From an uncultured Elusimicrobiales bacterium (GTDB taxonomy: Bacteria; Elusimicrobiota; Elusimicrobia; Elusimicrobiales; Elusimicrobiaceae), in assembly GCA_944324685.1 (NCBI GenBank), contig CALUXG010000025.1, forward strand, positions 1 to 41,288: 41,288 bases of DNA, written 5' to 3'. Below, piece by piece: positions 5,975 to 39,393 of this stretch. The position numbers and the translations under genes are program-made. The notes under the pieces are model-generated. The model ran no database searches. It was not told where the DNA came from and worked only from the letters and a program-made list of their open reading frames with translations. Within the stretch, counting starts at the first letter, position 1. The number at the start of each line of letters is the position of its first letter.

Positions 5975-6065
5975 TTTTTTTTTTTTGATACCCTATACAT
6001 GGCGAAAAATCAAACGCCGCTGAGACGTGTTTTTGAACGTTTAGACGCCATTATAGGGAGGAAAA
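5975..6065 (+). promoter_or_regulatory. Pilin leader, copy 1, with T12 tract
   Basis: Twelve T (5975-5986) are followed by GATACCCTATACATGGCG and then a leader reaching the pilin ATG. From 5987 to 6065 it aligns without gaps to 14077-14155 upstream of the second pilin, with 9 mismatches in 79 by my count. TATACA at 5994-5999 could be a -10 element; TTGACT at 5967 is too far (21 bases) to be a normal -35. The block looks like a shared promoter and 5' leader carried with the pilin gene. Confidence 0.65.
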
Positions 6066-6542
6066 ATGAGAAAAGGTTTTACGCTGATTGAACTTTTGGT
6101 AGTCGTGCTGATTATCGGCATTTTGTCCGCCATTGCTTTGCCACAGTATGAAAAAACGGTGGAACGCGCCCGCGCGGCGGAAGGGTTACAAATGGTGGCC
6201 TCCATTGCGCGTGCCAATGAAGTATATAAACTTTCCACCGGCAGTTATGCGACAGATATTTCCATGCTGGATATAGATATCCCCGGCTCCAATATCATAA
6301 CTACTCCAGCCAAAGATCCCCGAAAAGAGACGAAACTGTTCCAATACGGCACGCGGGCCTATAGTTATTTGAATTCTTCCAAAGCCATTGCACATCGTCT
6401 TCCACAGGAAGAAAAATATTCTTTGGTGGTATTAACGGATAACACAATTATTTGTTATCCTCATACACCGGAATATCAAGATTTTTGCCGCAGTCTGGGG
6501 TCCGGCAAAAAATACGATTCCGACGCTTACATTGTCAACTAA
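6066..6542 (+). CDS. Type IV pilin-like protein (prepilin)
   Basis: A 158-residue prepilin. The leader is only MRKG, cut by prepilin peptidase before F5, with the conserved glutamate at mature position 5 and a hydrophobic helix to about residue 27 that anchors and polymerises the protein. C130 and C141 near the C-terminus are placed to form the disulphide loop typical of pilin D-regions. GGGAGG gives a strong ribosome-binding site. No assembly gene is nearby, so it stands alone and would depend on machinery elsewhere. It shares its leader and first ~27 residues with the pilin at 14156 but the rest has diverged. Pilus subunit versus type II secretion-like pseudopilin cannot be decided. Confidence 0.9.
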   Translation: MRKGFTLIELLVVVLIIGILSAIALPQYEKTVERARAAEGLQMVASIARANEVYKLSTGSYATDISMLDIDIPGSNIITTPAKDPRKETKLFQYGTRAYSYLNSSKAIAHRLPQEEKYSLVVLTDNTIICYPHTPEYQDFCRSLGSGKKYDSDAYIVN

Positions 6543-14063: not shown

Positions 14064-14155
14064 TTTTTTTTTTTTTGATACCCTATACATGGCGAAAAAT
14101 TAAATGCCGCTGAGACGTGTTTTTGCACGATTAAACGCTGTTATAGGAAGAAAAA
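14064..14155 (+). promoter_or_regulatory. Pilin leader, copy 2, with T13 tract
   Basis: Thirteen T (14064-14076) then a 79-base leader with no gaps against copy 1. TTGTTT at 14061-14066 stands 17 bases before TATACA (14084-14089), a possible promoter; the T tract makes up most of the spacer, so its length would set the spacing. Confidence 0.65.
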
Positions 14156-14671
14156 ATGAAAAAAGGTTTTACATTAATTGAACTGTTGGTAGTCGTGCTG
14201 ATTATCGGTATATTGGCGGCCATTGCACTGCCGCAATATCAAGTGGCTGTATTAAAAGCCCGTTATATGCAGGCTGTTTCCTTGGGAAGTGCTTTGCGTC
14301 AAGCACAGGATATTTATTATATGGCTAACGGGAAATATTCAGTGGATTTGCGTAATTTGGATATATCTGTTCCTGTTCCGTCCGACTGTACAATATCCCC
14401 AACCGGCGCCTATATGGCATGTCCTGATTTTGCTTGTGTTGTGTATGATGAGTGGGAAAATGCGGAGAAATTTGGAACAGTATATTGTGCCTTAAGAAAA
14501 GAAGGGAGCCCTTATTTGTATTATGATGCCTCTCCAAGATGGAAAGAGAAGCGTTATTGTCAAGTGTCTTTAAGCGCACCAGAATATGAACTGGCTAAAA
14601 AAGTGTGTATCAGTTCGGGCGGCGTCTATGAAAAAACAATTTATAATTCAGAATATTATTTGTTGCCGTAA
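14156..14671 (+). CDS. Type IV pilin-like protein (prepilin)
   Basis: A 171-residue prepilin with the short leader MKKG cut before F5, mature glutamate at position 5, and a membrane/polymerisation helix to about residue 27. The globular part differs from the pilin at 6066: it has six cysteines (78, 89, 94, 111, 135, 151), enough for three disulphides, and a Tyr-rich C-terminus. The leader region and N-terminal helix match the other copy closely at the DNA level, so the two are recent paralogues with diverged heads. It stands alone, followed by a terminator. As before, pilus subunit and pseudopilin cannot be told apart. Confidence 0.88.
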   Translation: MKKGFTLIELLVVVLIIGILAAIALPQYQVAVLKARYMQAVSLGSALRQAQDIYYMANGKYSVDLRNLDISVPVPSDCTISPTGAYMACPDFACVVYDEWENAEKFGTVYCALRKEGSPYLYYDASPRWKEKRYCQVSLSAPEYELAKKVCISSGGVYEKTIYNSEYYLLP

Positions 14672-34060: not shown

Positions 34061-35428
34061 ATGGAGGCTTTTTACATAGTGTTGTCCCTTGTTTTAGGTG
34101 CGGCGGCCGGTTTTTTGGCGGCGTGCGTGTGGCTTGTTCCCTCCGTAAAAACCGCGCGCATGCAAGCGCAGCAGGCGCAGCGGCTGCAACAGGAAGTCAA
34201 AGAACAACAGGACCGTTTGCTCCGTTTGGACGTGGACAATGCCCGCTTGCGCGAACAGGCCGCCTCTTTGGAAAAACAACGTGTTTTGGTGGAAAAAAAT
34301 TTTTCGGAGCTTTCCGCCACATACCGTGCGCAATTTGCGGATTTGGCTGCCAAAATTCTGGAAGAAAAGAGCAAGGGTTTGGAAAGCAAAACCACCGAAA
34401 CGCTGCGACCGCTTGCTTTGCAGCTGGAGACTTTTTTTAAGAAAGTAACGGACATGGAACGTTTGACGTCGGAAAAACAATCCCTGTTGGAAAAAGGCCT
34501 TGCCGACGTGATAAAATCCACGGAGAAAATAGATCAGAGCGCGCTGGATTTGACCGCCGCCATCAAGGGGCGGCCGGAAGTGCGCGGAAGCTGGGGCGAA
34601 GAAGCGCTGCGGCGCATTCTGGAAATCAGCGGACTAAAGCGCGGAGTGGACTATTTTGAACAGGTTTCGGACGGAGGCAAACGGCTGGACGTGCAGATTG
34701 CCTTGCCGGCGGGCCGCTGGATTGTGGTGGACTCCAAGACTATTTTTAATCATTACGCGCAGTATTATCAGGAAGAGAATCCCCAGAAAAAAGAAGCATT
34801 TTTGGCCGAACATGTCAAAGATATAAAAGCCACGATAAAAGACCTCTCTTCCAAAAAATATTATTTGCAATTTCAAAAAACGGGCGAAAAAATGCAGCCG
34901 GATTATACATTGATGTTTGTTTCTCCCGAGAGTGCGCTTTTTGCGGCGTTGTCCAAAGATCCTGATATTGTAAACGAAGCGTGGAAAAACGACGTTGCCC
35001 TTGTTTCTTCGTCTTCTTTAATCAACACGCTGAAAATGGTGGCTCGTTTGTGGAACATAGAACGGCAAAACGAATATATGGACGAGCTGAAAGAAGACGT
35101 GGTCAAGCTGATGGAGCGGTTTAATGAATTTTTGGTCAGCTTTGCCAAGACGGAGTCCGCCGTCGCCAACGCATACGGCGCCATAAAAACCGCGCGTACG
35201 CATATTGACGGCAATAACGGCGCTCTGCTGCCGACGGCCCAGCGCATTATAGACGTTTATGAAGCGCCCGTTACCAAAGACAATGCGCGGCTGTTAAAGC
35301 GCATGGGGTATGATTATAACGGCTCCAAACGCCGCGGCAAAGAGGCGGTTCTGCCGGAAGGCGCCGCGGCGGATCGTCAAGAGGCTCTTTCGGACTCCTC
35401 GGAAGCGGCGGACTCTTTGGGCCGGTAA
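34061..35428 (+). CDS. rmuC: RmuC-family DNA recombination protein
   Basis: A 455-residue RmuC homologue. An N-terminal membrane helix (about 2-25) is followed by a long coiled coil (30-170) and the conserved RmuC core, with GRPEVRGSWGEEALRRILE, DVQIALPAGRWIVVDSKT (a nuclease-like fold) and YTLMFVSPESA. In E. coli loss of rmuC raises inversion at short inverted repeats; the fold suggests a DNA nuclease. GGAGG lies 5 bases before the ATG at 34061. It ends 2 bases from the convergent restriction-modification gene, with no terminator between. Confidence 0.93.
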   Translation: MEAFYIVLSLVLGAAAGFLAACVWLVPSVKTARMQAQQAQRLQQEVKEQQDRLLRLDVDNARLREQAASLEKQRVLVEKNFSELSATYRAQFADLAAKILEEKSKGLESKTTETLRPLALQLETFFKKVTDMERLTSEKQSLLEKGLADVIKSTEKIDQSALDLTAAIKGRPEVRGSWGEEALRRILEISGLKRGVDYFEQVSDGGKRLDVQIALPAGRWIVVDSKTIFNHYAQYYQEENPQKKEAFLAEHVKDIKATIKDLSSKKYYLQFQKTGEKMQPDYTLMFVSPESALFAALSKDPDIVNEAWKNDVALVSSSSLINTLKMVARLWNIERQNEYMDELKEDVVKLMERFNEFLVSFAKTESAVANAYGAIKTARTHIDGNNGALLPTAQRIIDVYEAPVTKDNARLLKRMGYDYNGSKRRGKEAVLPEGAAADRQEALSDSSEAADSLGR

Positions 35429-35430
35429 TT

Positions 35431-38400
35431 TTATATATCTTTTATCCACGCGCCGCCCAGCGCTTCTATTTCTTGCATAATAGACATAGTCCGTTTAAGG
35501 ACCAGCAGCATGTTTTTTATGTGTATTAAGTCGTCCAATCCCAGCAAAACGGCGTCTTTTTTGCGGTACTTAAGCCATTTGTCCACAGGTGCATACGAAC
35601 CTATTTGGAACTGATACAGGGCGGGGGTTACCCCGTGGAAAGAGATTTCCTTGCCGTCGGTCATTTGCAATACAAGCCGCGGGCTGGACGCCGTGGGCGG
35701 CGTGATTTTGGCAATGACGAAATTGACGATTTCCCCCTCGTATTCTTCGCGTATGTCCGCGTCTTTGGGGATGTGGCGCATGGTATGCAGGGCAATCAGC
35801 TGTGCGCCTAAAGCGGCGTATTGGTCAAATATTTGGCGGTTGCGCGTGAAAGGTATGCGCGGAAAGTCCGTTTTGAGAAATTCTATATATCTCCGGCGGT
35901 ATATGGGGCAGTGCAGCACGCCGTAGATGTAGTTTAGTATGTCCGGAGGGGTATACTGCCCCCCCCCAATATAGTAATCCGCGCGGAAGCGGCCCGTAAA
36001 ATTGGGGATTTGAACCTCTTGACCCATTTCATTTTCGTAAAGAAATAACGGGGCGATGTAGGTATTATGATTGACGAAACATAAATCGGTTGCTTTATTG
36101 GTAATATAGACATTCGTGTAAGAATTTCCTTGCAAATCTCGTGTGAAGCATAAACCTAAATTTTTCTTCCCAATAAGATGGCGGCAGGTTTGATAGCGCG
36201 GATAGGCAATTATACCCTTTGTTATTCCCGTATAATTTGTGTAACGAATATCAAAAGGCCTATAATTAATTTTTTCTGTTAAAACAGGATTTTCTAAGAG
36301 GTCTTTTTTAGCTAAAAGAATTTGCCAGTCTCTGCCATTTTTTAATTTATATTTTTTTCCTAATTCTTCACAGGATAAGTGAATGAAATTGTTTCTGATA
36401 AGATTTTTTTCATTTTTGCTATATACAGCATTAATGGCATCATTCTTGCTTTGTATTCCGCTGTTGTAATTCTCAAACACATCCGTCAATTTCCAAAATT
36501 TCTCATATTCGCTTTGCAAAGATAAATCTTTGTCCGTAAACCAATAAAACGGCGTTTGCTGCGGCTGCAACTGTTTCCACGGCAGGGAAAGCAGGGTGTG
36601 ATTTTCCAGAAAATCCAATTTTTCGGCGCGGCTGATGATTCCGTTGTCTTTGGTGGAATAGTAAAATACTTTTTTCTCCGACGGCTTTTCCTGTGCGGGG
36701 CGCTTGATAAACAACGTAATACATACGCCGACCATAATGTCAAAAATATTCTGATCCTGTTCTTTTTTGCGGGTGTTTCCGTGCAAATTCAGCACATAAA
36801 TCTCATCAAACGTTTCCAACAGGTGCTTGCGCATTTGCCGGTGCGTAACGCCGTCCAAAAAGCTGTTATTGGTGATTAAGCCCGCCACGCCGGAGCCGGA
36901 TTTATTTATTTTCCATTCGGCAAAGCGAATAAACTTGATGTATAAATCATCCAAATTTATTTTCTTTTCGTTAAGTCCTGTTTTATAGTCTTGGGTAAAT
37001 TCGTCAATTTCCTTGCCGGCGGATTTGCTCTTTCCGTTAAAATACGGCGGATTGCCTACCACGGCCAGAATGTCGGTTTGCTGTTTTACTTTCAGGGCTT
37101 TTTCATGCTCTTGTTTCAAATAGGGCAGCAGCTGGCTGATGGCGTGCGGGGCCAAATCCAGTGTATTGGTCAAATACACCGGCAGACGCTGTTCGTGAGT
37201 GATGGCAATGCCGTTGTCTTTTAAGAACTTCGTCAGCACCGTATGCGCCACGATATAAGGCGTAAACAACAGCTCAAAACCGTAAATGTCTTGCAGGATT
37301 TTATTTTTTATTTGTTGTTTTTCCAGCGGGCCGGCGTTTTTGTTTATCAGCAGTTCATAAATGCTGTCCAGAAAAGTACCCGTTCCGCAGGCAAAATCCA
37401 ATACTTTTACGCCTCTGTCCAAAAAACCGTCTTCCCGCTTAAAAACCGTTTTAATGATTTCCTGTACGCTCCGCACGATAAAATGCGTGGCCTCTTTGGG
37501 CGTGTAATAAACGCCGCTTTCTTTGCGGTTTTCCGTACCTTTGAGTTTATCATATTCTTTAAGAAAATCTTCGTATAAATAGGCGGTGATGCTGCCTTTG
37601 CCTTGGCTTTGTTTTATAAATTCCTGATTAATGGAACCAATGTCCACTAAATTAATGTTTTTGGCGATATTGATCAGCGCCATGTGTATGGAAGCGGGCA
37701 AATAGCGCGGCGTATAACCGGTACTGAGGAATTCATACAGCAGTTTATATTCCAAGGGAATTTTATTAAGCCAGTCGGGATTGTCTTCGTGGAATTTGTC
37801 GTCTTTTTGGTTCTGTTCAAACATTTCCATGCGTGCCAAAAACAGCCCGTATACGAAGCTTTGCGCGTAAATGTCGCAAAAGTCCGTTATGTCGTAATCA
37901 TAATTTAAGGAGTGCTGAAAATCTTTGAACAGTTCATTGAATTTATAAAAGAAGTCTTGCTCATTGTTGGCCGGATTGCTGACATAATTGCGCAAAGCGG
38001 CCGAATAGTAGAAACTTTGACTGGCCAAAGCGCGCACCAGATTTTTTTTGGTTTTTATATACGGGTAATCATAGCCGTAAAAATCCAAAAGCAAATTGAT
38101 AAAATCCTGTTCTTTGGTCGGTACGATCGATTCCGACAGATCTGCATTAATCAAACTGGCGCGGGCTTTGATTTTGCCGTTTTGCAGCAGAATAAAATCA
38201 CGGTAATTGGTAATAATGATGTTGGCGGCGGTTTTAGCGTAACGGAGGATTTGCTCGCTGTGGACGATTTCCTCAATGTTGCGGCTGATTTTTTTGCATT
38301 CAATAAATCCGATTAAAGACTTAAAAAGCGGCACGGAAGCGTCATATACAAAAAAATCCGGCGTGCCGTCTACGTCCAGTTCCGCGCCTTTTACCTCTTG

Positions 38401-38553
38401 CTCGGCAACAATGTTTTTGCCTTTGAACGGCAGCTGGTTGATTAAGTTTTCCAACGGCGTACGGTAAGTATGTTCATTGGCTTGGCGCGCGTCAATGGCT
38501 CGCACGGCCTGAATGTATGTGCGGATAATGTCTTTGTGTTCGCTAAACGGCAT
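35431..38553 (-). CDS. Single-polypeptide restriction-modification enzyme (type IIG-like) with a poly-G tract
   Basis: A 1040-residue fused nuclease/methyltransferase. The N-terminal PD-(D/E)xK nuclease has D66 in GTPDFFVY and E85-C-K87 in GFIECKK. A helical linker leads to an N6-adenine methyltransferase with motif I VLDFACGTGTF (~385) and motif IV NPPY (~500). The C-terminal half should hold the target-recognition domain; EKINYRPFDIRYTNY is conserved in this family. No helicase motifs are seen, which favours type IIG over type ISP. Codons 863-865 are nine consecutive G (Gly-Gly-Gly), a probable slippage site, and residues ~690-835 come from markedly AT-rich DNA. AAGGAG precedes the ATG. No separate methylase or specificity gene is near. 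In frame as read. Confidence 0.88.
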   Translation of the reverse strand: MPFSEHKDIIRTYIQAVRAIDARQANEHTYRTPLENLINQLPFKGKNIVAEQEVKGAELDVDGTPDFFVYDASVPLFKSLIGFIECKKISRNIEEIVHSEQILRYAKTAANIIITNYRDFILLQNGKIKARASLINADLSESIVPTKEQDFINLLLDFYGYDYPYIKTKKNLVRALASQSFYYSAALRNYVSNPANNEQDFFYKFNELFKDFQHSLNYDYDITDFCDIYAQSFVYGLFLARMEMFEQNQKDDKFHEDNPDWLNKIPLEYKLLYEFLSTGYTPRYLPASIHMALINIAKNINLVDIGSINQEFIKQSQGKGSITAYLYEDFLKEYDKLKGTENRKESGVYYTPKEATHFIVRSVQEIIKTVFKREDGFLDRGVKVLDFACGTGTFLDSIYELLINKNAGPLEKQQIKNKILQDIYGFELLFTPYIVAHTVLTKFLKDNGIAITHEQRLPVYLTNTLDLAPHAISQLLPYLKQEHEKALKVKQQTDILAVVGNPPYFNGKSKSAGKEIDEFTQDYKTGLNEKKINLDDLYIKFIRFAEWKINKSGSGVAGLITNNSFLDGVTHRQMRKHLLETFDEIYVLNLHGNTRKKEQDQNIFDIMVGVCITLFIKRPAQEKPSEKKVFYYSTKDNGIISRAEKLDFLENHTLLSLPWKQLQPQQTPFYWFTDKDLSLQSEYEKFWKLTDVFENYNSGIQSKNDAINAVYSKNEKNLIRNNFIHLSCEELGKKYKLKNGRDWQILLAKKDLLENPVLTEKINYRPFDIRYTNYTGITKGIIAYPRYQTCRHLIGKKNLGLCFTRDLQGNSYTNVYITNKATDLCFVNHNTYIAPLFLYENEMGQEVQIPNFTGRFRADYYIGGGQYTPPDILNYIYGVLHCPIYRRRYIEFLKTDFPRIPFTRNRQIFDQYAALGAQLIALHTMRHIPKDADIREEYEGEIVNFVIAKITPPTASSPRLVLQMTDGKEISFHGVTPALYQFQIGSYAPVDKWLKYRKKDAVLLGLDDLIHIKNMLLVLKRTMSIMQEIEALGGAWIKDI
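35959..35967 (-). repeat. G9 homopolymer inside the restriction-modification gene
   Basis: Nine G on the coding strand, encoding Gly863-865. One base fewer brings a TAA about 8 codons later; one more brings a TGA some 45 codons later. Either removes most of the last 175 residues. Confidence 0.85.
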
Positions 38554-39386: not shown

Positions 39387-39393
39387 CCCCCCC
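39387..39393 (-). repeat. G7 run in the channel gene's ribosome-binding site
   Basis: On the minus strand the Shine-Dalgarno GGAGG runs into five more G before AAT-ATG. Slippage would change the spacer (now 8 bases) rather than the reading frame. Confidence 0.6.

What the first reader, a model, noticed from the sequence alone, without database searches (positions are those of the whole stretch)
35959..35967. Poly-G9 tract as a likely phase-variation switch in a one-polypeptide restriction-modification gene
The coding strand has nine consecutive G, exactly codons 863-865, in an otherwise intact 1040-residue nuclease/methyltransferase. I traced both shifted frames: minus one base stops after about 8 codons, plus one after about 45, in each case removing most of the last 175 residues next to the recognition region. 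Homopolymeric G tracts of this length are established contingency loci in restriction-modification genes of Campylobacter, Helicobacter and Neisseria. As it stands the gene is ON. A switch would turn methylation of all its genomic sites on or off and could control other genes (a phasevarion).
Basis: partly seen in the sequence, partly recalled or inferred. Interest (0 to 1): 0.82.

Follow-up and report, generated by a model that had tools for sequence, protein, structure and literature searches.

The report
Poly-G run in a restriction-modification gene
A gut-type bacterium's DNA-cutting-and-marking gene does contain nine G's in a row that would break the gene if the run slipped, but such runs are no commoner here than chance predicts, so an evolved on/off switch is possible and unproven.

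Summary
Nine G lie on the coding strand (window 35959-35967), exactly codons 863-865 of an intact 1040-aa ORF. One base less gives an 872-aa product, one more a 909-aa product; both lose the conserved YIYGVLHCPIYRRRYIEFLKTDFPRIP block and the rest of the specificity domain. The gene is a single-chain Type IIG-like enzyme (nuclease + N6-adenine methylase + Type_ISP_C domain) of an Elusimicrobiota MAG.

"Likely phase-variation switch" is not carried by the evidence. In 66 genomes of the genus, runs of G>=8 (5.7 per genome) and G>=9 (0.8) match a composition model (6.0 and 1.1); Campylobacter instead peaks at G9-G10. mutS and mutL are intact. The tract sits in a length-variable linker where no homologue has a G run; the closest (72% identical) reads Ala-Gln-Asn. 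In this genus, in-gene G>=10 runs fall mostly in glycan or pilin genes; G9 runs fall in the same mix of genes as G8 runs.

It is not refuted. Campylobacter's Type IIG gene cj0031 also switches at G9 and most homologues lack the tract; Neisseria tracts of 8 or more are often variable. Read-level data were unavailable. Best reading: an ordinary mobile Type IIG enzyme with an incidental, mildly mutable run.

The parts
35431..38553 (-). single-chain Type IIG-like restriction-modification gene, 1040 aa, open in this assembly
   Evidence: PADLOC REase_MTase_IIG E 3.9e-176; PF18135, PF07669, PF02384
35959..35967 (-). G9 tract, codons 863-865 (Gly-Gly-Gly), in a length-variable linker
38290..38361 (-). 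PD-(D/E)xK-type nuclease motif, residues 65-88 (PDFFVY...IECKK)
   Evidence: motif positions; residues D66, E85, K87 kept in the three aligned homologues; assignment as nuclease motif is inference
37372..37398 (-). methylase motif I, residues 386-394 (DFACGTGTF)
   Evidence: lies inside the N6_Mtase match
37042..37053 (-). methylase catalytic motif NPPY, residues 501-504
35548..36483 (-). Type_ISP_C specificity domain, residues 691-1002; the tract lies inside it
   Evidence: PF18135, 183 bits
35851..35958 (-). conserved block just after the tract, residues 866-901 (QYTPPDILNYIYGVLHCPIYRRRYIEFLKTDFPRIP), lost in either shifted frame
   Evidence: also aligned to solved chains 7LO5 and 4XQK
34061..35428 (+). 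rmuC, left neighbour
   Evidence: PF02646
38628..39383 (-). ion channel gene, right neighbour; in relative G006 it lies directly next to rmuC with no RM gene between
   Evidence: PF00520

Best explanation
This is an intact, patchily distributed Type IIG-like restriction-modification gene whose G9 run is incidental. The run arose in a linker that tolerates almost any sequence and has no role of its own. Like any G9 it will gain or lose a G more often than an average site, and each slip makes an inactive enzyme missing the end of its specificity domain. With mismatch repair intact and no sign of tract maintenance, these slips are expected to be rare loss-of-function mutations, not an evolved switch. 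Shown: sequence, reading frames, domain content, homologue comparison, chance-level counts, presence of mutS and mutL. Inferred: slip rate, loss of activity, absence of selection for switching.
For: Counts in 66 genomes of the genus: 379 runs of G>=8 and 54 of G>=9, i.e. 5.74 and 0.82 per genome, against 5.98 and 1.12 expected from an order-2 model. Campylobacter tracts peak at 9 (53%) and 10 (26%) (PMC6321876). None of nine homologues has a G run at the site, and the linker varies in length and sequence. The nearest orthologue (72% identical, same rmuC neighbour) has GCG CAA AAT there. mutS (885 bits) and mutL (467 bits) are intact and adjacent on contig C38. Gene class: 7 of 10 in-gene runs of G>=10 are in glycan or pilin genes, against 3 of 21 for G9 and 6 of 30 for G8 (Fisher 0.006 for >=10 against 8 and 0.72 for 9 against 8). 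The whole gene, including the part after the tract, has dN far below dS against that orthologue (dS saturated), so the full-length form is being kept.
Against: Three GGG codons in a row are an unlikely choice at this one site (0.4% from codon usage). cj0031, a Type IIG gene with G9 at bp 2573 of 3732, is truly phase-variable although most homologues lack the tract (PMC4889913). In N. meningitidis, homopolymers of 8 or more are mostly variable in deep reads (PMC5084427). The genus does carry some G>=10 runs that sit at frame breaks in glycan genes, so tract slippage probably happens here. The class comparison was made after seeing the data.
Confidence: 0.63

Rival explanations
1. A true phase-variation switch: slippage at G9 turns restriction and methylation on and off together, as in cj0031 of Campylobacter jejuni.
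For: Same enzyme class, same tract length, same ON length, tract inside the specificity region and before a conserved block. A single-chain enzyme can switch off both activities together without self-damage (argument made for cj0031 in PMC4889913). The genus has a minority of expanded tracts in surface genes, some frame-broken.
Against: Run count at chance level, mutSL intact, no homologue with the tract, G9 class not enriched for switch-type genes. No length variation has been seen, because only one genome of the species is available.
Confidence: 0.26
2. The assembled G9 is not the real or only length: a mixed population or a miscalled homopolymer was collapsed to one consensus.
For: The genome is a draft in 49 contigs. 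In Bifidobacterium the deposited tract length differed from the main lengths in the population (PMC9187656).
Against: G9 keeps a long ORF open whose other parts are conserved; a random miscall would more often break the frame.
Confidence: 0.06
3. The three glycines are a selected flexible hinge and the GGG codons are neutral.
For: Gly-rich linker just before a conserved block.
Against: No homologue has a run of glycines there; the 72% orthologue has Ala-Gln-Asn.
Confidence: 0.05

Closest known systems
cj0031, phase-variable Type IIG enzyme of Campylobacter jejuni NCTC11168 (PMC4889913)
   Same: single-chain nuclease-methylase; G9 inside the gene with conserved domains on both sides; G9 is the open length; most homologues lack the tract
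   Different: 1243 aa with the tract at 69% of the gene, here 1040 aa and 83%; its switching is shown by colony genotyping and methylation, here nothing is shown; Campylobacter genomes have many G tracts with a peak at G9-G10, this genus has not
Type ISP enzymes LlaBIII (4XQK) and LlaGI (5FFJ)
   Same: methylase and Type_ISP_C specificity domain align over residues 308-926
   Different: no helicase domain found here and the chain is far shorter (1040 against 1578 and 1406 aa)
Plasmid-borne 'type ISP restriction/modification enzyme' genes of Borrelia
   Same: same layout over 98% of the length, 32-35% identity
   Different: no G run at the site (two checked)
CamA, orphan adenine methylase of Clostridioides difficile (7LO5; the name is own knowledge, the record says site-specific adenine methyltransferase)
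   Same: methylase core and the block after the tract align
   Different: orphan methylase (own knowledge); here an N-terminal nuclease motif is present

Membership tests
Type IIG restriction-modification enzyme | nuclease, methylase and specificity parts in one chain | tested here: met
   (nuclease by motif only)
Type IIG restriction-modification enzyme | cuts beside its site, stimulated by SAM | not testable with these tools
   needs purified enzyme
Type ISP restriction-modification enzyme | Type_ISP_C specificity domain | tested here: met
   PF18135, 183 bits
Type ISP restriction-modification enzyme | ATP-driven helicase/translocase domain in the same chain | tested here: not met
   no helicase family in Pfam at E 0.001; LlaBIII matches only over its C-terminal half
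Simple-sequence contingency locus | homopolymer of a length known to slip (G>=8) that breaks the frame | tested here: met
   length criterion from PMC6321876
Simple-sequence contingency locus | tract length varies between clones or strains | not testable with these tools
Simple-sequence contingency locus | tract kept or recurring among orthologues (supporting, not required) | tested here: not met
   none of nine homologues
Simple-sequence contingency locus | genome or lineage with more long G tracts than chance (supporting, not required) | tested here: not met
Phasevarion | switched methylation that changes expression of other genes | not testable with these tools
   needs methylome and transcriptome of both states

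The most novel reading that the evidence does not exclude
A phase-variable Type IIG enzyme in Elusimicrobiota, to my knowledge the first slippage-switched methylase of this phylum, possibly driving a phasevarion in a bacterium with intact mismatch repair.
Probability: 0.22. Interest if true: 0.45.

Novelty: new member of a known kind. Interest (0 to 1): 0.27.

Why it matters
If real, it would extend slippage-switched methylation to a little-studied phylum and give another Type IIG case beside cj0031. As it stands it is a useful caution: one long homopolymer in a restriction-modification gene is weak evidence unless the genome's own background of such runs is measured.

Tried and rejected
Search for another assembly of the species in genome contigs: only UBA1436, the same 72% homologue. 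Viral contigs: no relative. Elusimicrobiota phase variation in papers: nothing on point. The slip-rate paper for Campylobacter (PMC3401435) is not held. In one search homologue L048 was read on the wrong strand; corrected. Non-conservation as a refutation: rejected, since cj0031 homologues also lack the tract. No structure was predicted: the position in a variable linker follows from the alignment, and a model would not decide between the readings. The G8 control set comes only from the genomes listed before the output was cut; gene classes were judged by me from Pfam hits, a few from sequence (pilin L031) or NCBIfam (L039, CCA-type nucleotidyltransferase).

Full report
Observation. The + strand reads CTGCCCCCCCCCAATATA around 35957-35974, so the coding strand of ORF 35431-38553(-) has nine G at 35959-35967, in phase as codons 863-865. 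Removing one G ends the protein at 872 aa, adding one at 909 aa; three either way keeps the frame.

The gene. P0001 (1040 aa) matches PADLOC Type IIG models (E 3.9e-176) and, in Pfam, N6_Mtase, Eco57I and Type_ISP_C. It carries an N-terminal PD...ECK motif, methylase motif DFACGTGTF and NPPY. No helicase domain was found, so it is not a Type ISP enzyme in spite of the Type_ISP_C domain; Type IIG-like is the better name. The tract lies within the specificity domain, directly before a block (TPPDILNYIYGVLHCPIYRRRYIEFLKTDFPRIP) kept in all homologues and aligned to LlaBIII and to chain 7LO5. Either shifted frame loses this block, so loss of function is a strong inference, not a result.

Where it lives. 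The window is contig 25 of a 1.40-Mb, 49-contig, 95% complete genome. Its closest named relative by this gene is Elusimicrobia bacterium UBA1436. The enzyme is patchy: 3 of 66 genomes in the genus, this one included, and 9 of 341 in the phylum have a relative. In G001 the 72% orthologue also sits beside rmuC; in G006, whose ion channel is 94% identical, rmuC and the channel are neighbours with no RM gene between. It is an insertion that comes and goes.

Is the run more than chance? The genome has five runs of G>=8 and two of G>=9. The 66 genomes have 379 and 54, i.e. 5.74 and 0.82 per genome. An order-2 Markov model of the window with the tract masked predicts 5.98 and 1.12 per 1.4 Mb; other orders range 2.7-34 and 0.3-8.7. 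Synonymous codon resampling predicts about 20 and 6. So long G runs are within or below expectation. In Campylobacter the length distribution peaks at 9 (53%) and 10 (26%), with 7-8 rarer (PMC6321876); here G8 outnumbers G9 about tenfold.

What do such runs mark in this genus? I fetched every G>=9 run but one that lies at a contig end (G028:C34), and 58 G8 runs. The lengths are 9: 33, 10: 15, 11: 3, 12: 2. The flattening after 9 points to a small class of expanded tracts. Of in-gene runs of G>=10, 7 of 10 are in glycan or pilin genes (TupA-like ATP-grasp twice, glycosyltransferase, sugar dehydratase, pyruvyl transferase, epimerase-glycosyltransferase, pilin). For G9 it is 3 of 21 and for G8 6 of 30 (Fisher tests). 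Two glycan genes of genome G020 are broken in frame at the tract (L022, L083). So slippage-type loci probably exist in this genus, aimed at the surface, but the G9 class as a whole behaves like background. This split was made after looking and should be taken as a guide.

Homologues. In nine homologues the linker differs in length and sequence; none has a run above six G or C anywhere in the gene. The orthologue in G001 has GCG CAA AAT. This does not refute switching: cj0031 homologues mostly lack the tract too (PMC4889913).

Mutability. mutS and mutL are intact and adjacent. In Vibrio, losing mutS raises single-base indels 330- to 470-fold (PMC5854121), so intact repair should keep a G9 fairly quiet; but in N. 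meningitidis runs of 8 or more are mostly variable in deep reads (PMC5084427). A modest slip rate is therefore expected and cannot be measured here.

Judgement. Most likely an ordinary mobile Type IIG enzyme with an incidental, mildly mutable run (0.63). A real switch keeps about one chance in four. Reads settle it.

A stronger lead of the same kind was found elsewhere in the window: the T12 and T13 runs at 5975 and 14064 lie in promoter-like sequences before pilin genes, a repeated family in this genus. See the noticed items.

Noticed in passing
window 5975-5986 (T12) and 14064-14076 (T13): Both runs lie in a repeated leader, cTTGACTcg-T(n)-GATACCCTATACATGGCGAAAAAT..., about 80 bases before pilin-like genes (PF07963) 6066-6542 and 14156-14671. 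The genome has 15 copies by one exact pattern and 29 by a looser one; relatives G045 and G062 have 21 and 18. Among 39 pilin-linked copies read, T12 is the mode (24) with a range of T7 to T14. If TTGACT and TACCCT are the -35 and -10 (my reading), the T run fills the spacer (16 bases at T12), so its length would set promoter strength: a candidate slippage-tuned pilin promoter family. No expression or read data.
   Followed up: partly
L018, L073-L078 (genome G009): Seven loci with C9 to C12 directly upstream of pilin-like sequences in near-identical surroundings (AAAGGAAAACTTTATTCATA[C9-12]GTCGGTGGGGAGGCC), tract length differing between copies: another homopolymer in a pilin leader, of other composition.
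   Followed up: partly
L022/L094, L080, L081, L083, L084 (genome G020): Five runs of G or C9-11 in glycan-type genes of one genome (TupA-like ATP-grasp twice, sugar dehydratase, glycosyltransferase, acyltransferase); L022 and L083 are broken in frame at the run. Looks like a set of slippage contingency loci.
   Followed up: partly
L093 (G000 contig 32, 8606-8616): C11 near the 3' end of a fused epimerase-glycosyltransferase ORF of the window's own genome; the longest G/C run of this genome and a better contingency candidate than the G9.
   Followed up: partly
window 39387-39393, and L029: G7 just upstream of the ATG of the ion channel gene here, and G9 just before a channel-like ORF in genome G031: G runs at the ribosome-binding site.
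   Followed up: no
L034 (genome G041 contig 85): An EamA-type transporter split into two frames exactly at a G9 run.
   Followed up: no
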